The translations under genes were made by a program, and so were the position numbers. DNA of 42,837 bases from Oxalobacteraceae bacterium (GTDB lineage Bacteria; Pseudomonadota; Gammaproteobacteria; Burkholderiales; Burkholderiaceae_D): assembly GCA_900299005.1 (NCBI GenBank), contig OMID01000035.1, positions 1 to 42,837 of the forward strand. Reading direction: 5' to 3'. The notes under the pieces are model-generated. The model was given only the letters and a program-made list of their open reading frames with translations, had not been told where the DNA came from and did no database searches. Below are positions 1 to 24,028 of the stretch, piece after piece. Numbering within the stretch: position 1 is the stretch's first letter; each line of letters begins with the position of its first letter.

Positions 1-162
1 ACCCAGCTGTTCTTCCAGCTGACGTATTTGCGCACTCACCGCAGATTGCGAGCGAAAGGATTTTTCTGCGGCGATGCGGAAACTCGCGTACTCGCCCACC
101 ATCAGGAAGGTTTGCAGCAGCTTGAGATTGACGTGGGATAGCGAACTGGTAACGGACTTCAT
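1..162 (-). CDS. LysR-family transcriptional regulator, N-terminal part (cut by window edge)
   Basis: Only the first 54 codons lie in the window; the gene runs off the left edge. The peptide starts MKSVTSSLSHVNLKLLQTF and continues through a LysR-type winged helix-turn-helix: residues about 12-54 contain the usual L-LQTF start, an A-S-F-R-I-A-A-E turn, and the recognition-helix pattern S-Q-S-A-V-S-A-Q-I-R-Q-L-E-E-Q-L-G. LysR proteins are cytoplasmic DNA-binding regulators that often control the divergently transcribed neighbour. Here the neighbour is a CoA transferase starting at 473, so it is the obvious candidate target. The effector domain is outside the window, so the ligand is unknown. 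The ATG at 162 is chosen because the family normally begins a few residues before the HTH. Confidence 0.85.
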   Translation of the reverse strand, partial: MKSVTSSLSHVNLKLLQTFLMVGEYASFRIAAEKSFRSQSAVSAQIRQLEEQLG

Positions 163-243: not shown

Positions 244-262
244 TATGCACTAAATCTGCATA
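244..262. promoter_or_regulatory. Inverted repeat, candidate LysR-type operator
   Basis: TATGCA (244-249) and TGCATA (257-262) form a perfect 6-bp inverted repeat around a 7-base A/T-rich centre. It lies in the gap between a LysR-family gene and its divergent neighbour, where LysR proteins usually bind. It does not match the strict T-N11-A spacing, so assignment to this regulator is inference. Confidence 0.35.
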
Positions 263-281
263 ATCAACAACAATAAGTCAT

Positions 282-311
282 TTGTCGAATCAGCCACAGG
301 GGGCCTACAGT
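282..311 (+). promoter_or_regulatory. Weak sigma70-like promoter candidate for the CoA transferase leader
   Basis: TTGTCG (282-287) and TACAGT (306-311) each match four of six consensus bases with an 18-base spacer. Transcription would begin near 318, just before the first of three stem-loops, giving a leader of about 155 bases. Hand-found and of low certainty. Confidence 0.25.
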
Positions 312-324
312 CTGGTCCCAACAA

Positions 325-406
325 GGCGGCAACAAGATCGCCACGTTACATAAATCAAGACGGCAGCAAGACCGTCCCCCGTTTAGAAGGCGGCAGCAAG
401 ACCGCC
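325..406 (+). promoter_or_regulatory. Three consecutive stem-loops with paired stem changes and a near-identical loop
   Basis: Three 18-base hairpins occur at 325-342, 359-376 and 389-406. Each has a 5-bp stem and an 8-base loop. Stems are GGCGG/TCGCC, GACGG/CCGTC and GGCGG/CCGCC; loops are CAACAAGA, CAGCAAGA and CAGCAAGA. Where the second stem changes G to A on the left, the right arm changes C to T, so pairing is kept. The first stem contains a G-T pair, which is stable only in an RNA read from the plus strand. They lie in the probable 5' leader of the CoA transferase gene. I do not recognise a known riboswitch or RNA family. They may be a structured regulatory RNA, a repeated protein-binding site, or a small repeat. 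Confidence 0.55.
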
Positions 407-419
407 GTTTGAATACTTG

Positions 420-446
420 ACTTTCCTGACCCTGCGTCAGGAAAGT
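420..446. promoter_or_regulatory. 11-bp perfect inverted repeat upstream of the CoA transferase
   Basis: ACTTTCCTGAC (420-430) and GTCAGGAAAGT (436-446) are exact reverse complements around the 5-base centre CCTGC. The element ends about 16 bases before the GAGGAG ribosome site and 26 bases before the GTG start at 473. No T-run follows on either strand, so it is not a normal intrinsic terminator. A repressor operator or a translation-controlling hairpin fits better. Confidence 0.5.
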
Positions 447-472: not shown

Positions 473-1702
473 GTGGGAACAGCAGCAAACGCGCAAGGCC
501 AGTCAATCGCACAGGCCGGCGCGCTCGAGGGATTGCGCGTGCTGGATATCGCAACCTTCATTGCTGCTCCCTTTTGCGGCACCATACTCGGCGATCTCGG
601 TGCCGAGGTCATCAAGATCGAAATGCCGGGCGCGGGCGATTCGCTGCGCAAGTACGGCACCCCTACCGAATGCGGTGACACGCTGGTCTGGCTTTCGGAA
701 GCGCGCAATAAAAAAACCATCACACTGGACTTCCGCAAACCGGAGGGCGTCGAGCTTTTCAAAAAGCTGGTCGCAGAGAGCGACGTGGTGCTGGAAAATT
801 TCCGCCCCGGCACACTCGAAAAATGGGGTATCGGCTACGAAGCGCTCAAGGCCGTCAATCCCACCCTGATCATGTTACGCATCAGTGCGTACGGTCAGAC
901 CGGACCGAAACGTCAGGAACCCGGTTTCGCTCGCATTGCGCATGCCTTTGGCGGACTCTCTTACCTTTCCGGTGAACCCGATGGACAACCCGTGGTGCCC
1001 GGATCGACTTCCGTTGCTGACTATGCCTCCGGCATGTGGGGCGCCATCGGCGTGCTCGCTGCACTGCGCGCGCGAGATCGCAAAGGCATTGGTCAGTTCA
1101 TCGATCTCGGCCTGTATGAATCCGTGTTCCGACTGCTCGATGAGATGGTACCGGCGTATGCAAAATTCGGTTATGTGCGTGAGCGCATGGGTGCGGACAC
1201 GCATGCTGCGGTACCCCACAGCCACTACCAGACCGGCAGTGGCGAGTGGGTAGCCCTGGCCTGCACCAGCGACAAGATGTGGGAGCGCTTCACCCGGTTG
1301 ATGGGCAAACCTGAGCTTGCAGAGAAATACCCAACCAGCGCGATCCGTGTCGAGAACCGGCATACGGTCAACGGCATTGTCGCCGACTGGATCGGCAGTC
1401 TGCCACTCGACAAAGTGCTCGAAGAAGCCAGCAAGGGCGAAGTGCCCTGCGCACAAATCTATTCAATCAAGGATATTTTCAGCGACGAGCATTACGCGGC
1501 TCGCGGCAACATGATGACGGTGCAAGATGAGCGTGCCGGCGAGCTAGTGCTGCCCGCACCGGTGCTCAAACTCTCCGAGACGCCCACCGTCTTCAAGCAT
1601 GTGGGCAGAGCACTCGGCGCCGACAATGACACCGTCTATCGCGACGTGCTGGGGCTGACCCAGGAACAGTTGCGCTCTTTCGCCGATGCCGGCGTGATCT
1701 AA
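473..1702 (+). CDS. CaiB/BaiF (family III) CoA transferase
   Basis: A 409-residue cytoplasmic enzyme expected to move CoA between an acyl-CoA donor and a carboxylic acid, activating the acid for catabolism. The N-terminal L-E-G-L-R-V-L-D-I-A-T-F-I-A-A-P block, the D-L-G-A-E-V-I-K-I-E segment and K-K-T-I-T-L-D-F-R-K-P-E-G are classic for family III. Asp183, in a V-A-D-Y-A-S-G context, matches the position of the family's catalytic aspartate. Length is normal. The start is GTG at 473, supported by GAGGAG about 5 bases upstream. A binding protein gene follows after 11 bases, so the acid may be imported by that system. The substrate is not deducible. Confidence 0.9.
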   Translation: MGTAANAQGQSIAQAGALEGLRVLDIATFIAAPFCGTILGDLGAEVIKIEMPGAGDSLRKYGTPTECGDTLVWLSEARNKKTITLDFRKPEGVELFKKLVAESDVVLENFRPGTLEKWGIGYEALKAVNPTLIMLRISAYGQTGPKRQEPGFARIAHAFGGLSYLSGEPDGQPVVPGSTSVADYASGMWGAIGVLAALRARDRKGIGQFIDLGLYESVFRLLDEMVPAYAKFGYVRERMGADTHAAVPHSHYQTGSGEWVALACTSDKMWERFTRLMGKPELAEKYPTSAIRVENRHTVNGIVADWIGSLPLDKVLEEASKGEVPCAQIYSIKDIFSDEHYAARGNMMTVQDERAGELVLPAPVLKLSETPTVFKHVGRALGADNDTVYRDVLGLTQEQLRSFADAGVI

Positions 1703-1725
1703 CCACTAAAGGTATGGGGGCCGAG

Positions 1726-2940
1726 ATGACAAATCAAGTTAAAACGCTGGTTGCAGCAACCTGCAGCGCTCTTGCGCTGGGCTGGGGCGCCACCGCCGCC
1801 GCCCAAGTCTCCGACGATGTGGTCAAGATTGGTTTTATCACGGACATCAGCGGCCCCTACTCCGATACCGACGGTACCGGCGGCGTGGAAGCCGTGAAGA
1901 TGGCGATCGAAGATTTTGGTGGCAAAGTCAATGGCAAGAAAATCGAATTCATTTATGCCGATCACCTAAACAAAGCCGATATCGCTGCCAGCAAAGCGCG
2001 CGAATGGTTCGACGCGCAGGGTGTGGACATGATTCTCGGAGGCGCGAACTCGGGTGCCGCGCTGGCGACAGCAAAAGTCGCTCTCGACAAAAAGAAAACC
2101 TACATCAATGTCGGCGCTGGCACGGCGCGACTGACCAATGAAGAGTGCAATCCTTACACGATTCATTATTCCTATGACACCGTCGCACTGGCCAAGGGTA
2201 CTGGCGGTGCGGTGTTTCGCCAAGGCGGCAAGAGCTGGTATTTCATCACTGCCGACTACGCATTTGGCGCCTCGCTCGAAGGCGATACCACGCGGGTGAT
2301 CAAAGCCAATGGCGGCAACGTGCTCGGCTCGTCGAAGCATCCGGTCGGTGCTTCGGATTTCTCCTCCTTCATGCTGCAGGCGCAGGCATCGAAGGCGCAG
2401 ATCCTGGGACTGGCAAATGCCGGCGATGACCTGGTGAATTCCATCAAGACCGCGAACGAGTTCGGTGTCAAGAAATCCATGAAGATCGCTGCCCTGCTGA
2501 TGTACCTGAGCGATGTGCACGCCCTGGGTCTGCAACTGACCCAGGGCATGCTCCTGACCGATGCCTGGTACTGGGACACGAATGACACGACCCGCGCATG
2601 GGGCAAGCGTTACTTTGAGCGCGTGAAAAAAATGCCCAACAGCGGTCATGCCGGCGACTACTCGGCGGTCACCACTTACCTGAAGGCTGTCAAAGCGACA
2701 GGCACGGATAATCCGGAGAAGGTCATCGCCTGGATCAAGGCTAACAAGATCAATGACGTGTTCGCCCAGAACGGTTATGTCCGTGCGGACGGGCGCATGG
2801 TGCACGACATGCATCTGGTCCAGGTGAAAACCCCCGCTGAATCGAAACAGCCGTGGGATTATTTCAAGTTGATCGAGACAATTCCCGGTGAGCAGGCATT
2901 CACGACAAAAGAAGAAAGCAAATGCGTTAACTGGAAGTAG
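1726..2940 (+). CDS. ABC transporter substrate-binding protein, branched-chain amino acid (Liv) type
   Basis: A periplasmic binding protein of the Peripla_BP_6/LivJ family. A Sec signal peptide is visible (MTNQVKTLVAATCSALALG, cleavage probably after A-A-A), followed by V-K-I-G-F-I-T-D-I-S-G-P-Y, the usual first strand. Members bind amino acids, amides or aromatic and short-chain acids. An ATG at 1714 is also in frame; I prefer 1726 because it gives a basic signal-peptide start and has GGGGG 5 bases upstream. No permease or ATPase adjoins it, so it is an orphan that may use the Liv permease encoded at 30205-34350 or one elsewhere. Position directly after the CoA transferase suggests a shared substrate. 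Confidence 0.88.
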   Translation: MTNQVKTLVAATCSALALGWGATAAAQVSDDVVKIGFITDISGPYSDTDGTGGVEAVKMAIEDFGGKVNGKKIEFIYADHLNKADIAASKAREWFDAQGVDMILGGANSGAALATAKVALDKKKTYINVGAGTARLTNEECNPYTIHYSYDTVALAKGTGGAVFRQGGKSWYFITADYAFGASLEGDTTRVIKANGGNVLGSSKHPVGASDFSSFMLQAQASKAQILGLANAGDDLVNSIKTANEFGVKKSMKIAALLMYLSDVHALGLQLTQGMLLTDAWYWDTNDTTRAWGKRYFERVKKMPNSGHAGDYSAVTTYLKAVKATGTDNPEKVIAWIKANKINDVFAQNGYVRADGRMVHDMHLVQVKTPAESKQPWDYFKLIETIPGEQAFTTKEESKCVNWK

Positions 2941-12159: not shown

Positions 12160-12593
12160 CCCGCGTGATCAAGCGCCTCGAGTGCTTGGCGAATGGTGTG
12201 CTGAGGATCTACACAGCTGCGCTAGCGTAGTGGACACTGTAGATCCCAGCGTTCGCTGGGATGACGATGTTGAGGCTAGTGGAGTGTGCTGTGGATCCCA
12301 GCTTTCGCTGGGATGACGGTGTTGGGGCTAGTGGGGTGGGCTGTGGATCCCAGCGTTCGCTGGGATGACGGTGTTCGGGGTTGCGGGGTGGGCTGTGGGT
12401 TTCAGCTTTCGCTGGGATGACGGTGTTCGGGGTTGCGGGGTGCGCTGTGGGTTTCAGCTTGCGCTGGGGTGACGGTGTTGGGGCAACGGCCGCCCAAACC
12501 CCCGCCCAGACCTGTCATCCCAGCGAAAGCTGGGATCCATCGCCGCATCGGGCCAGTGTCCGCTCACCCCGGGTCCGTCCGGTGATGCAAATC
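12160..12593. other. Intergenic region between convergent genes, filled by palindromic repeats
   Basis: This 434-base gap lies between the 3' ends of the cyclase gene (plus) and an aminotransferase gene (minus). A weak 7-bp stem (12170-12176 with 12182-12188, one G-T pair) without a T-run follows the cyclase gene. The rest is the 52-bp tandem array and inverted copy at 12239-12540, listed separately. Open frames across the array are repeat artefacts. Confidence 0.7.
12239..12540. repeat. 52-bp tandem repeat array of a REP-like palindrome, plus an inverted copy
   Basis: A 20-base near-palindrome of the type ATCCCAGCGTTCGCTGGGAT recurs at 12243, 12295, 12347, 12399 and 12451, exactly 52 bases apart. 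The connecting sequence (GACGGTGTTSGGG, then a G-rich stretch ending GGGCT or GCGCT) is repeated too, so whole units were duplicated. Units four and five share a decayed left arm (GTTTCAGC). A sixth copy at 12517-12536 is in inverted orientation. The same palindrome recurs at 23682-23960. No open frame or transposase is associated. It fits a REP/MITE-like dispersed element; effects on termination or mRNA ends of the two convergent genes are possible. Confidence 0.85.
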
Positions 12594-23639: not shown

Positions 23640-24028
23640 GGTCAGGGTCACTCTGCTGGCTTGACCACAGAGTGGCGATGGATCCCAGCGTGCGCTGGGA
23701 TGACGGTGGATGGGAGCATCCCACAGCAGAGGGTCGGTGAAGGAGTGGCGATGGATCCCAGCGTGCGCTGGGATGACGGTGGTGAGGGGATTGCGGCGCT
23801 AAGGGCTGCTTTACACCGTCGCCCCAGCAGCTATGGACCAGTGCCACTGTGTAGAACCGTCCACCCACTAACTACGGGCACAGCAACCGTTTAAACCGCC
23901 CAGCAAGCAAGTGCCGGCAATACCACTGTTTAGAACCGTCATCCCAGCGCACGCTGGGATCCATCGTCAAACACGAACACCCCAACCATCTGACGCACAT
24001 CGCTTTAGCCTTGGACAAAAACAGCCCC
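23640..24028. other. Intergenic region with three palindromic repeat copies
   Basis: A gap of about 389 bases between two plus-strand genes. It contains three copies of the window's palindromic repeat (23682-23701, 23755-23774 and, inverted, 23941-23960). No promoter, RNA or coding region was convincingly recognised in the remainder. Confidence 0.6.
23669..23964. repeat. Three copies of the ATCCCAGC..GCTGGGAT palindrome (two direct, one inverted)
   Basis: ATCCCAGCGTGCGCTGGGAT occurs at 23682-23701 and 23755-23774, with flanks GAGTGGCGATGG and GACGGTGG shared by both copies 73 bases apart. The reverse orientation, ATCCCAGCGCACGCTGGGAT, is at 23941-23960 with the complementary flank CATCG. The layout, direct copies then one inverted copy, mirrors the array at 12239-12540. 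No coding capacity. Confidence 0.85.

What the first reader, a model, noticed from the sequence alone, without database searches (positions are those of the whole stretch)
325..406. Three tandem stem-loops with compensatory stem changes and a near-constant loop in the CoA transferase leader
Sequence shows three 18-base hairpins (325-342, 359-376, 389-406), each a 5-bp stem and 8-base CARCAAGA loop. The stem of copy two changes a G-C pair to A-T on both sides, and copy one has a G-T pair that is stable only in plus-strand RNA. Loop conservation with stem covariation suggests selection on RNA structure. With the further 11-bp dyad at 420-446 they fill a leader ending at the ribosome site. I know no riboswitch or RNA family with this design; possible roles are a multi-site protein-binding leader or a small RNA.
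Basis: partly seen in the sequence, partly recalled or inferred. Interest (0 to 1): 0.7.

Follow-up and report, generated by a model that had tools for sequence, protein, structure and literature searches.

The report
Conserved hairpins at an mRNA's start
A small RNA hairpin, present once or three times just after the predicted start of one bacterial metabolic message, is kept in four related bacteria, which points to a local, so far undescribed control or protection element for that message.

Summary
Three 18-nt hairpins (5-bp stem, CARCAAGA loop) lie at 325-342, 359-376 and 389-406, in the leader of a family III (CaiB-type) CoA-transferase gene. They are not random and not a genome-wide repeat. 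In the genus, 4 of 21 genomes hold a close ortholog; all 4 carry the hairpin at the same place, three copies in two genomes, one in two. All 40 stem pairs of the 8 copies are standard, and 2 of the 5 pairs change on both sides, although fourfold-degenerate sites of the gene are near saturation (39-46% identity to the window). A conserved promoter beside a divergent LysR-type gene predicts a transcript start near 318-320, so the first stem starts about 5-7 nt from the 5' end. No Rfam family matches, and no other convincing locus came up in 392 family genomes. A conserved triplet, a conserved 11-bp dyad, a small RNA and a Betaproteobacteria-wide family are not. Best mechanism: a 5'-proximal structured leader that protects or regulates the mRNA, perhaps through a loop-binding factor. 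Effect and factor are inferred, not shown.

The parts
325..342 (+). hairpin copy 1, GGCGG-CAACAAGA-TCGCC; the copy that aligns with the single hairpin of G003 and G008
359..376 (+). hairpin copy 2, GACGG-CAGCAAGA-CCGTC (pair 2 is A-U)
389..406 (+). hairpin copy 3, GGCGG-CAGCAAGA-CCGCC
420..446 (+). 11-bp perfect dyad with 5-base loop and no T-run after it; not kept in relatives (G017 differs there, G003 and G008 lack the stretch)
282..287 (+). predicted -35 hexamer TTGTCG; 18 nt before the -10 hexamer here, 17 in G017, G003, G008 and G345
   Evidence: read by eye from the sequences; conservation; not listed by the consensus scan (8 of 12 matches, the scan asks for 9)
306..311 (+). predicted -10 hexamer TACAGT; transcript start inferred near 318-320
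   Evidence: read by eye; start not mapped
244..262 (+). conserved dyad TATGCACTAAATCTGCATA, possible LysR-type regulator site, centred about 66 bp before the inferred start
   Evidence: position typical of LysR-type sites (passage in PMC8407307); the dyad itself holds T-N13-A, not the exact T-N11-A box; dyad imperfect in G017 and G008
1..162 (-). 5' part of the divergent LysR-type regulator gene, cut by the contig end
   Evidence: start codon at 162-160 read from the sequence and by alignment with L036; family by its ortholog in L036
464..467 (+). Shine-Dalgarno-like GGAG
473..1702 (+). family III (CaiB-type) CoA-transferase gene, GTG start
   Evidence: PF02515, E 1e-111
1714..2940 (+). ABC-type substrate-binding protein (Peripla_BP_6), next gene in all 4 genomes
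   Evidence: order in L036, L037, L038 from the ORF lists (family there judged by sequence likeness, not scanned)

Best explanation
The element is a cis-acting structured 5' leader of the CoA-transferase operon mRNA, which is probably under the divergent LysR-type regulator. The unit is one hairpin (stem RRCRG/YYGYC, loop C-R-N-Y-A-M-G-A) that starts about 5-7 nt from the predicted 5' end; in the window and in G017 there are three units. Most likely it acts after transcription has started: the hairpin near the 5' end shields the mRNA from 5'-end-dependent decay (RppH/RNase E), and the partly fixed loop suggests that a trans factor, probably a protein, recognises it and tunes decay or ribosome access. 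Shown here: the hairpins, their conservation at one locus, the paired changes, the conserved promoter-like block upstream. Inferred: the transcript start, LysR control, the effect on decay or translation, the loop-binding factor.
For: All 4 genus members with a close ortholog (own, 91, 84, 82%) have the hairpin in the same place. 40 of 40 stem cells pair in 8 copies; 2 of 5 pairs change on both sides; 4 of 500 column shuffles reach the observed pairing, and slid structures pair at most 57.5%. For the orthologous first copy alone, in an alignment made without structure, 20 of 20 cells pair, 31 of 500 shuffles reach it, and slid structures pair at most 45%. Fourfold sites of the gene are 39-46% identical to the window and 17 of 178 fourfold columns are invariant over the 4 genomes, against 5 of 8 loop columns and 5 of 10 stem columns of the first copy; the binomial chance for the loop is 0.0003 at that rate and 0.012 at the three-lineage rate of 37 of 179. 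Between the -10 hexamer and the first stem base there are 13, 13, 12 and 11 nt (sequences). A hairpin at the 5' end can stabilise bacterial mRNA (passages of PMC3997798).
Against: No transcript data. In folds of the whole predicted leader the stems do not always dominate: pair probabilities about 0.3, 0.99, 1.0 (window), 0.8, 0.48, 0.01 (G017), 0.98 (G003), 0.65 (G008). Only 4 genomes and 8 copies, some of them duplicates, so the counts are not independent events. The loop is not clearly more fixed than the arms. The next ortholog, G345 (73%), keeps the promoter layout but not this loop. The same decay review says that rpsO mRNA and T7-transcribed lacZ mRNA are not stabilised by sequestering the 5' end. 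A pure 5' cap does not explain the loop, and no binding protein was identified.
Confidence: 0.47

Rival explanations
1. Passive 5' stem-loop stabiliser only: any hairpin would do, and the loop likeness reflects common descent and duplication.
For: Position next to the predicted 5' end in 4 of 4 genomes; copy number varies (3, 3, 1, 1); loop and arms about equally fixed; the fold of the G345 leader holds a different 5-bp hairpin.
Against: 5 of 8 loop columns invariant against 17 of 178 fourfold columns.
Confidence: 0.25
2. DNA-level operator: 18-bp inverted repeats bound by a dimeric transcription factor in the initially transcribed region.
For: Inverted repeats next to a regulated-looking promoter; 5 of 10 arm columns are invariant; minus-strand hairpins fold about as well.
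Against: The spacer is as fixed as the arms, unusual for an operator; arm changes are paired and the 4 non-Watson-Crick cells are all G-U on the plus strand, which a DNA palindrome does not favour.
Confidence: 0.13
3. Target of an antisense or trans small RNA that pairs with the CARCAAGA loops.
For: Exposed, A-rich, repeated loops (sequence).
Against: No candidate RNA was sought; loop positions 2, 3, 4 and 6 vary between copies.
Confidence: 0.07
4. Small-molecule aptamer (riboswitch) of the guanidine-II type, with hairpins as binding modules.
For: Repeated small hairpins upstream of a metabolic gene; mini-ykkC was once thought protein-binding for the same reason (passage in PMC2864571).
Against: Single hairpin in 2 of 4 genomes; loops not self-complementary (seen in the sequence); no plus-strand terminator-like site in 100-600. 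Alternative folds at the ribosome site were not tested systematically.
Confidence: 0.05
5. No RNA function: a duplicated sequence whose pairing is accidental.
For: Few genomes; another tandem repeat with palindromes lies in the window.
Against: Paired changes and loop constraint at near-saturating divergence.
Confidence: 0.03

Closest known systems
5'-terminal mRNA stem-loop stabilisers (ompA, papA type)
   Same: hairpin a few nt from the predicted 5' end
   Different: here the loop is partly fixed and the hairpin may be repeated three times; no decay data
mini-ykkC / guanidine-II riboswitch
   Same: small repeated hairpins with conserved loop bases in a 5' leader
   Different: 8-nt C-R-N-Y-A-M-G-A loop, not ACGR; one hairpin can suffice; different genes
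ANTAR target hairpin pairs
   Same: short tandem stem-loops with conserved loop bases
   Different: 8-nt loop, not the 6-nt loop with A1 and G4; no terminator seen
pan motif (Weinberg 2010, passage)
   Same: simple hairpin, mostly in tandem, before metabolic operons
   Different: no stem with two bulged A; here one genus, one locus
MAEB motif of Burkholderia (recalled, paper not held)
   Same: by recall, repeated hairpins before metabolic genes in a Burkholderiales genus
   Different: could not be compared; by recall at many loci there, at one locus here

Membership tests
any Rfam 15 family | covariance-model score at gathering threshold | tested here: not met
   0 matches in the whole window; three chance-level matches for 150-600 at E up to 10
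ANTAR target | two hairpins with 6-nt loops, A at 1 and G at 4 | tested here: not met
   8-nt loops CAACAAGA/CAGCAAGA; definition from passages of PMC3369931
ANTAR target | second hairpin overlaps an intrinsic terminator | tested here: not met
   the only terminator-like site found in 100-600 is on the minus strand
guanidine-II riboswitch | two stem-loops with ACGR loops | tested here: not met
   loops differ; one hairpin in G003 and G008; ACGR from a passage of PMC2864571
guanidine-II riboswitch | ligand binding | not testable with these tools
   needs in-line probing
5' stem-loop stabiliser | stem within a few nt of the transcript 5' end | tested here: inconclusive
   stem 11-13 nt after the predicted -10 in 4 genomes; start not mapped
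5' stem-loop stabiliser | longer mRNA half-life | not testable with these tools
   needs a decay assay
DNA operator | half-site letters kept, spacer free | tested here: inconclusive
   arms 5 of 10 and spacer 4 of 8 columns invariant over 8 copies; arm changes are paired
MAEB motif | consensus hairpin of that motif | not tested
   paper not held; the 10 of 21 papers listed by a word search show no such motif in title or abstract start

The most novel reading that the evidence does not exclude
A dedicated, locus-specific RNA-binding regulator reads a C-R-N-Y-A-M-G-A octaloop (perhaps a C-G pair with a bulged A under a 5-nt loop) at the very 5' end of one catabolic mRNA, and the lineage has tuned its strength by changing the number of sites between one and three.
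Probability: 0.2. Interest if true: 0.6.

Novelty: new variant of a known kind. Interest (0 to 1): 0.42.

Why it matters
If true, it is a very small conserved leader element tied to one operon. An Rfam scan misses it, and it is too short to stand out in a whole-genome scan; it was reached from one window and its orthologs. Copy number one or three in close relatives makes it a natural test of what repeating an RNA site does. It would also add a post-transcriptional layer to a CoA-transferase operon that is probably LysR-controlled.

Tried and rejected
Genome-wide repeat: rejected, CGGCARCAAGAYCG is exact only at the three copies in the own genome.

Wider family, single-hairpin model R1. On 21 genus genomes it gave 8 strong matches (29.8-36 bits), all at the CoA-transferase leader; the next best was 24.5 bits (at most 150 first-look candidates per genome were scored). 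Of 13 weaker loci looked at, 11 lie inside an open frame of over 100 codons, one (L123) does not, and for one (L140) the script read the wrong place; the other weak rows were not looked at. On 392 family genomes there were 27 matches at E up to 0.01: the same 8 and 19 others (stricter filters, 19 candidates scored per genome, so a weak second locus could be missed). Score alone does not separate them: G066 reaches 30.9 bits, above G008's 29.8. Of those 19, 18 sit in stop-free stretches of 155 codons or more (G066's in 629 and, its second, in 418), the nineteenth (L155) in 119. These 8 copies built the model, so their scores are no independent test.

Tandem model R2, on 399 order genomes (14 candidates scored each) and 21 genus genomes (150 each): known arrays 72-77 bits (the window's copies 1-2, 34 nt apart, only 32), next best other genome 34.1 bits; 74 of 399 order genomes, own included, passed E 0.02, so its E-values are too kind. 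Eleven loci were inspected (10 of those fetched, 1; 8 alignments printed); none looked like a second leader array, and two (L172, L174) look like terminators.

More orthologs. Of the 80 loci kept, L036-L038 (the contigs of G017, G003, G008) have the hairpin; R1 on the other 77 gave 18 matches at E up to 5, best 18.9 bits, none on the plus strand within 600 bases before the gene. An earlier run on 9 loci, G345 and G138 among them, gave at most 13.9 bits. I read the upstream DNA of 15 of the 80; for L090 the printed stretch lay inside the gene. The motif scan in that script missed G003 and G008, whose loops I saw by eye and then scored. 34 genomes of G345's genus gave only G345.

Also set aside: plasmids, no match. 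Terminator: no run of five T after any of the three copies. One repeat-coded leader peptide: the window's copies are 34 and 30 nt apart, so not in one frame (in G017 they are 30 and 30 apart). CsrA-type sites: no GGA in the loops. These three are from reading the sequence.

Full report
What is there. The RNA fold of 300-480 has all three, with energy -62.3 kcal/mol against a shuffled mean of -51.7 (sd 4.4; z -2.4; 3 of 200 shuffles as good). No shuffle of 5000 gave two like-looped hairpins.

Setting. The downstream gene is a family III CoA-transferase (PF02515), followed by a periplasmic binding protein, a GMC oxidoreductase and an aldehyde dehydrogenase. No row shown by NCBIfam for the five proteins scanned passes its cut-off; the best for the CoA-transferase is succinyl-CoA:mesaconate CoA-transferase at 241.5 bits against 700. 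On the other strand a LysR-type gene starts at about 162 and is cut by the contig end; its ortholog in L036 is a full LysR-like protein, followed there by a CitE/RipC-like lyase. L037 and L038 show the same order (families there judged by likeness). A citramalyl- or malyl-CoA type pathway is a guess from these neighbours.

Relatives. Of 21 genus genomes (own included) 4 have a match at E up to 1e-100: own, G017 (91%), G003 (84%), G008 (82%). Their leaders hold: G017 GACGG-CAACAAGA-TCGTC, GGCGG-CACCAAGA-CCGTC and GGCGG-CGCCAAGA-CCGCC; G003 GGCAG-CACTAAGA-CTGTC; G008 GACAG-CAATACGA-CTGTC. G003 and G008 have one copy each. L034 and L035 showed the wrong side of the gene; L037 and L038 are the same contigs in the right direction.

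Covariation. Eight copies, 40 cells, all standard pairs. Pairs 1 and 3 never vary; pair 2 is AU:3 GC:3 GU:2; pair 4 is GC:6 AU:2; pair 5 is GC:6 GU:2. 'Further pair types' (4) and 'pairs changed on both sides' (2) are not unusual against shuffles (491 and 39 of 500 reach them); share paired, changed cells and covariation score are (4 of 500 each). For the 4 orthologous first copies the figures are weaker: 31 of 500 for those three measures, 186 and 356 of 500 for the other two. The tool warns that such shuffles ignore relatedness; the slid controls (at most 57.5% and 45% paired) keep it, but they favour a structure derived from these sequences.

Constraint. Fourfold sites: 98 of 211 identical (window-G017), 75 of 182 (window-G003), 74 of 191 (window-G008). 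Across the 4 genomes 17 of 178 fourfold columns are invariant; in the leader alignment, 42 of 52 columns of the promoter block, 7 of 8 around the -10, 5 of 8 loop columns, 3 of 5 and 2 of 5 stem columns, and 1 of 5 columns of the 3' flank. The chance of 5 or more of 8 is 0.0003 at the four-genome rate and 0.012 at the three-lineage rate of 37 of 179. Over all 8 copies, 4 of 8 loop and 5 of 10 stem columns are invariant: the loop is held above the coding background but no more than the arms, and what marks the arms is that their changes are paired. C1 and G7 of the loop never vary and could pair with A8 bulged; the fold gives this pair about 0.4 of the time when the stem forms.

Promoter. A block at 242-293 and a TACAGT-like hexamer are conserved; the -35/-10 spacing is 18 in the window and 17 in G017, G003, G008 and G345 (read). 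The dyad 244-262 is centred near -66 if the start is near 319; LysR-type sites are often around -65 (passage in the introduction of PMC8407307). The consensus scan did not list this promoter: TTGTCG/TACAGT match 8 of 12, and the scan asks for 9.

Limits of range. Counts are in Tried and rejected. G345, outside the genus, has the gene (73%) and the promoter layout; its leader fold has another hairpin without this loop. In G138 (62%) the 500 bases upstream looked coding and held no such loop. The genome searches drew 392 and 399 genomes from larger groups, so other carriers may exist.

Mechanism. Arms that change in pairs, with G-U on one strand only, fit an RNA hairpin better than a DNA operator, but the operator is not excluded. 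The place at the predicted 5' end fits control of decay. Passages in a decay review (PMC3997798) say that a hairpin, ribosome site or bound protein at or near the 5' end can stabilise long downstream regions (said of B. subtilis, more than of E. coli), and that an added 5' hairpin stabilises bla mRNA and impedes RppH; the same passages say that rpsO and T7-transcribed lacZ mRNAs are not so affected. The loop constraint asks for something more, and a bound factor is the simplest guess. Against this, whole-leader folds make some copies weak (window copy 1 about 0.3, G017 copy 3 0.01), and the 11-bp dyad of the window is not a conserved part.

Known kinds. No Rfam family. ANTAR targets fail on loop features (passages of PMC3369931), and so does guanidine-II (listing and abstract starts only; ACGR loops from a passage of PMC2864571). 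The pan motif and the early view of mini-ykkC were seen as passages of PMC2864571. MAEB is recalled only. My word searches for this design in print were made, in an open-licence library; their listings show no description of it, which is a weak negative.

Noticed in passing
window 12237-12484; also 23683-23773: A 52-bp tandem repeat (4.8 copies, 89% matches) carrying palindromes such as TCCCAGCGTTCGCTGGGA; two more palindromes TCCCAGCGTGCGCTGGGA lie at 23683 and 23756. It looks like a dispersed palindromic repeat.
   Followed up: no
L172 (G607) 1501-1550: A hairpin GGCGG-CACAAAGA-CCGCC followed by six T in a distant genome: terminator-like, with a similar loop, a reminder that single hairpins of this kind arise in terminators.
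   Followed up: partly
L036 647-1606, L037 705-1664, L038 742-1701: A CitE/RipC-like C-C lyase gene lies next to the LysR gene in the relatives (L036 scanned, the others alike by sequence); the window's contig ends before it.
   Followed up: partly
L123 around 1501: The weak hairpin match in G016 lies outside open frames of over 100 codons, amid a short repeat (gaagacagtactggacgta twice), perhaps another intergenic repeat.
   Followed up: no
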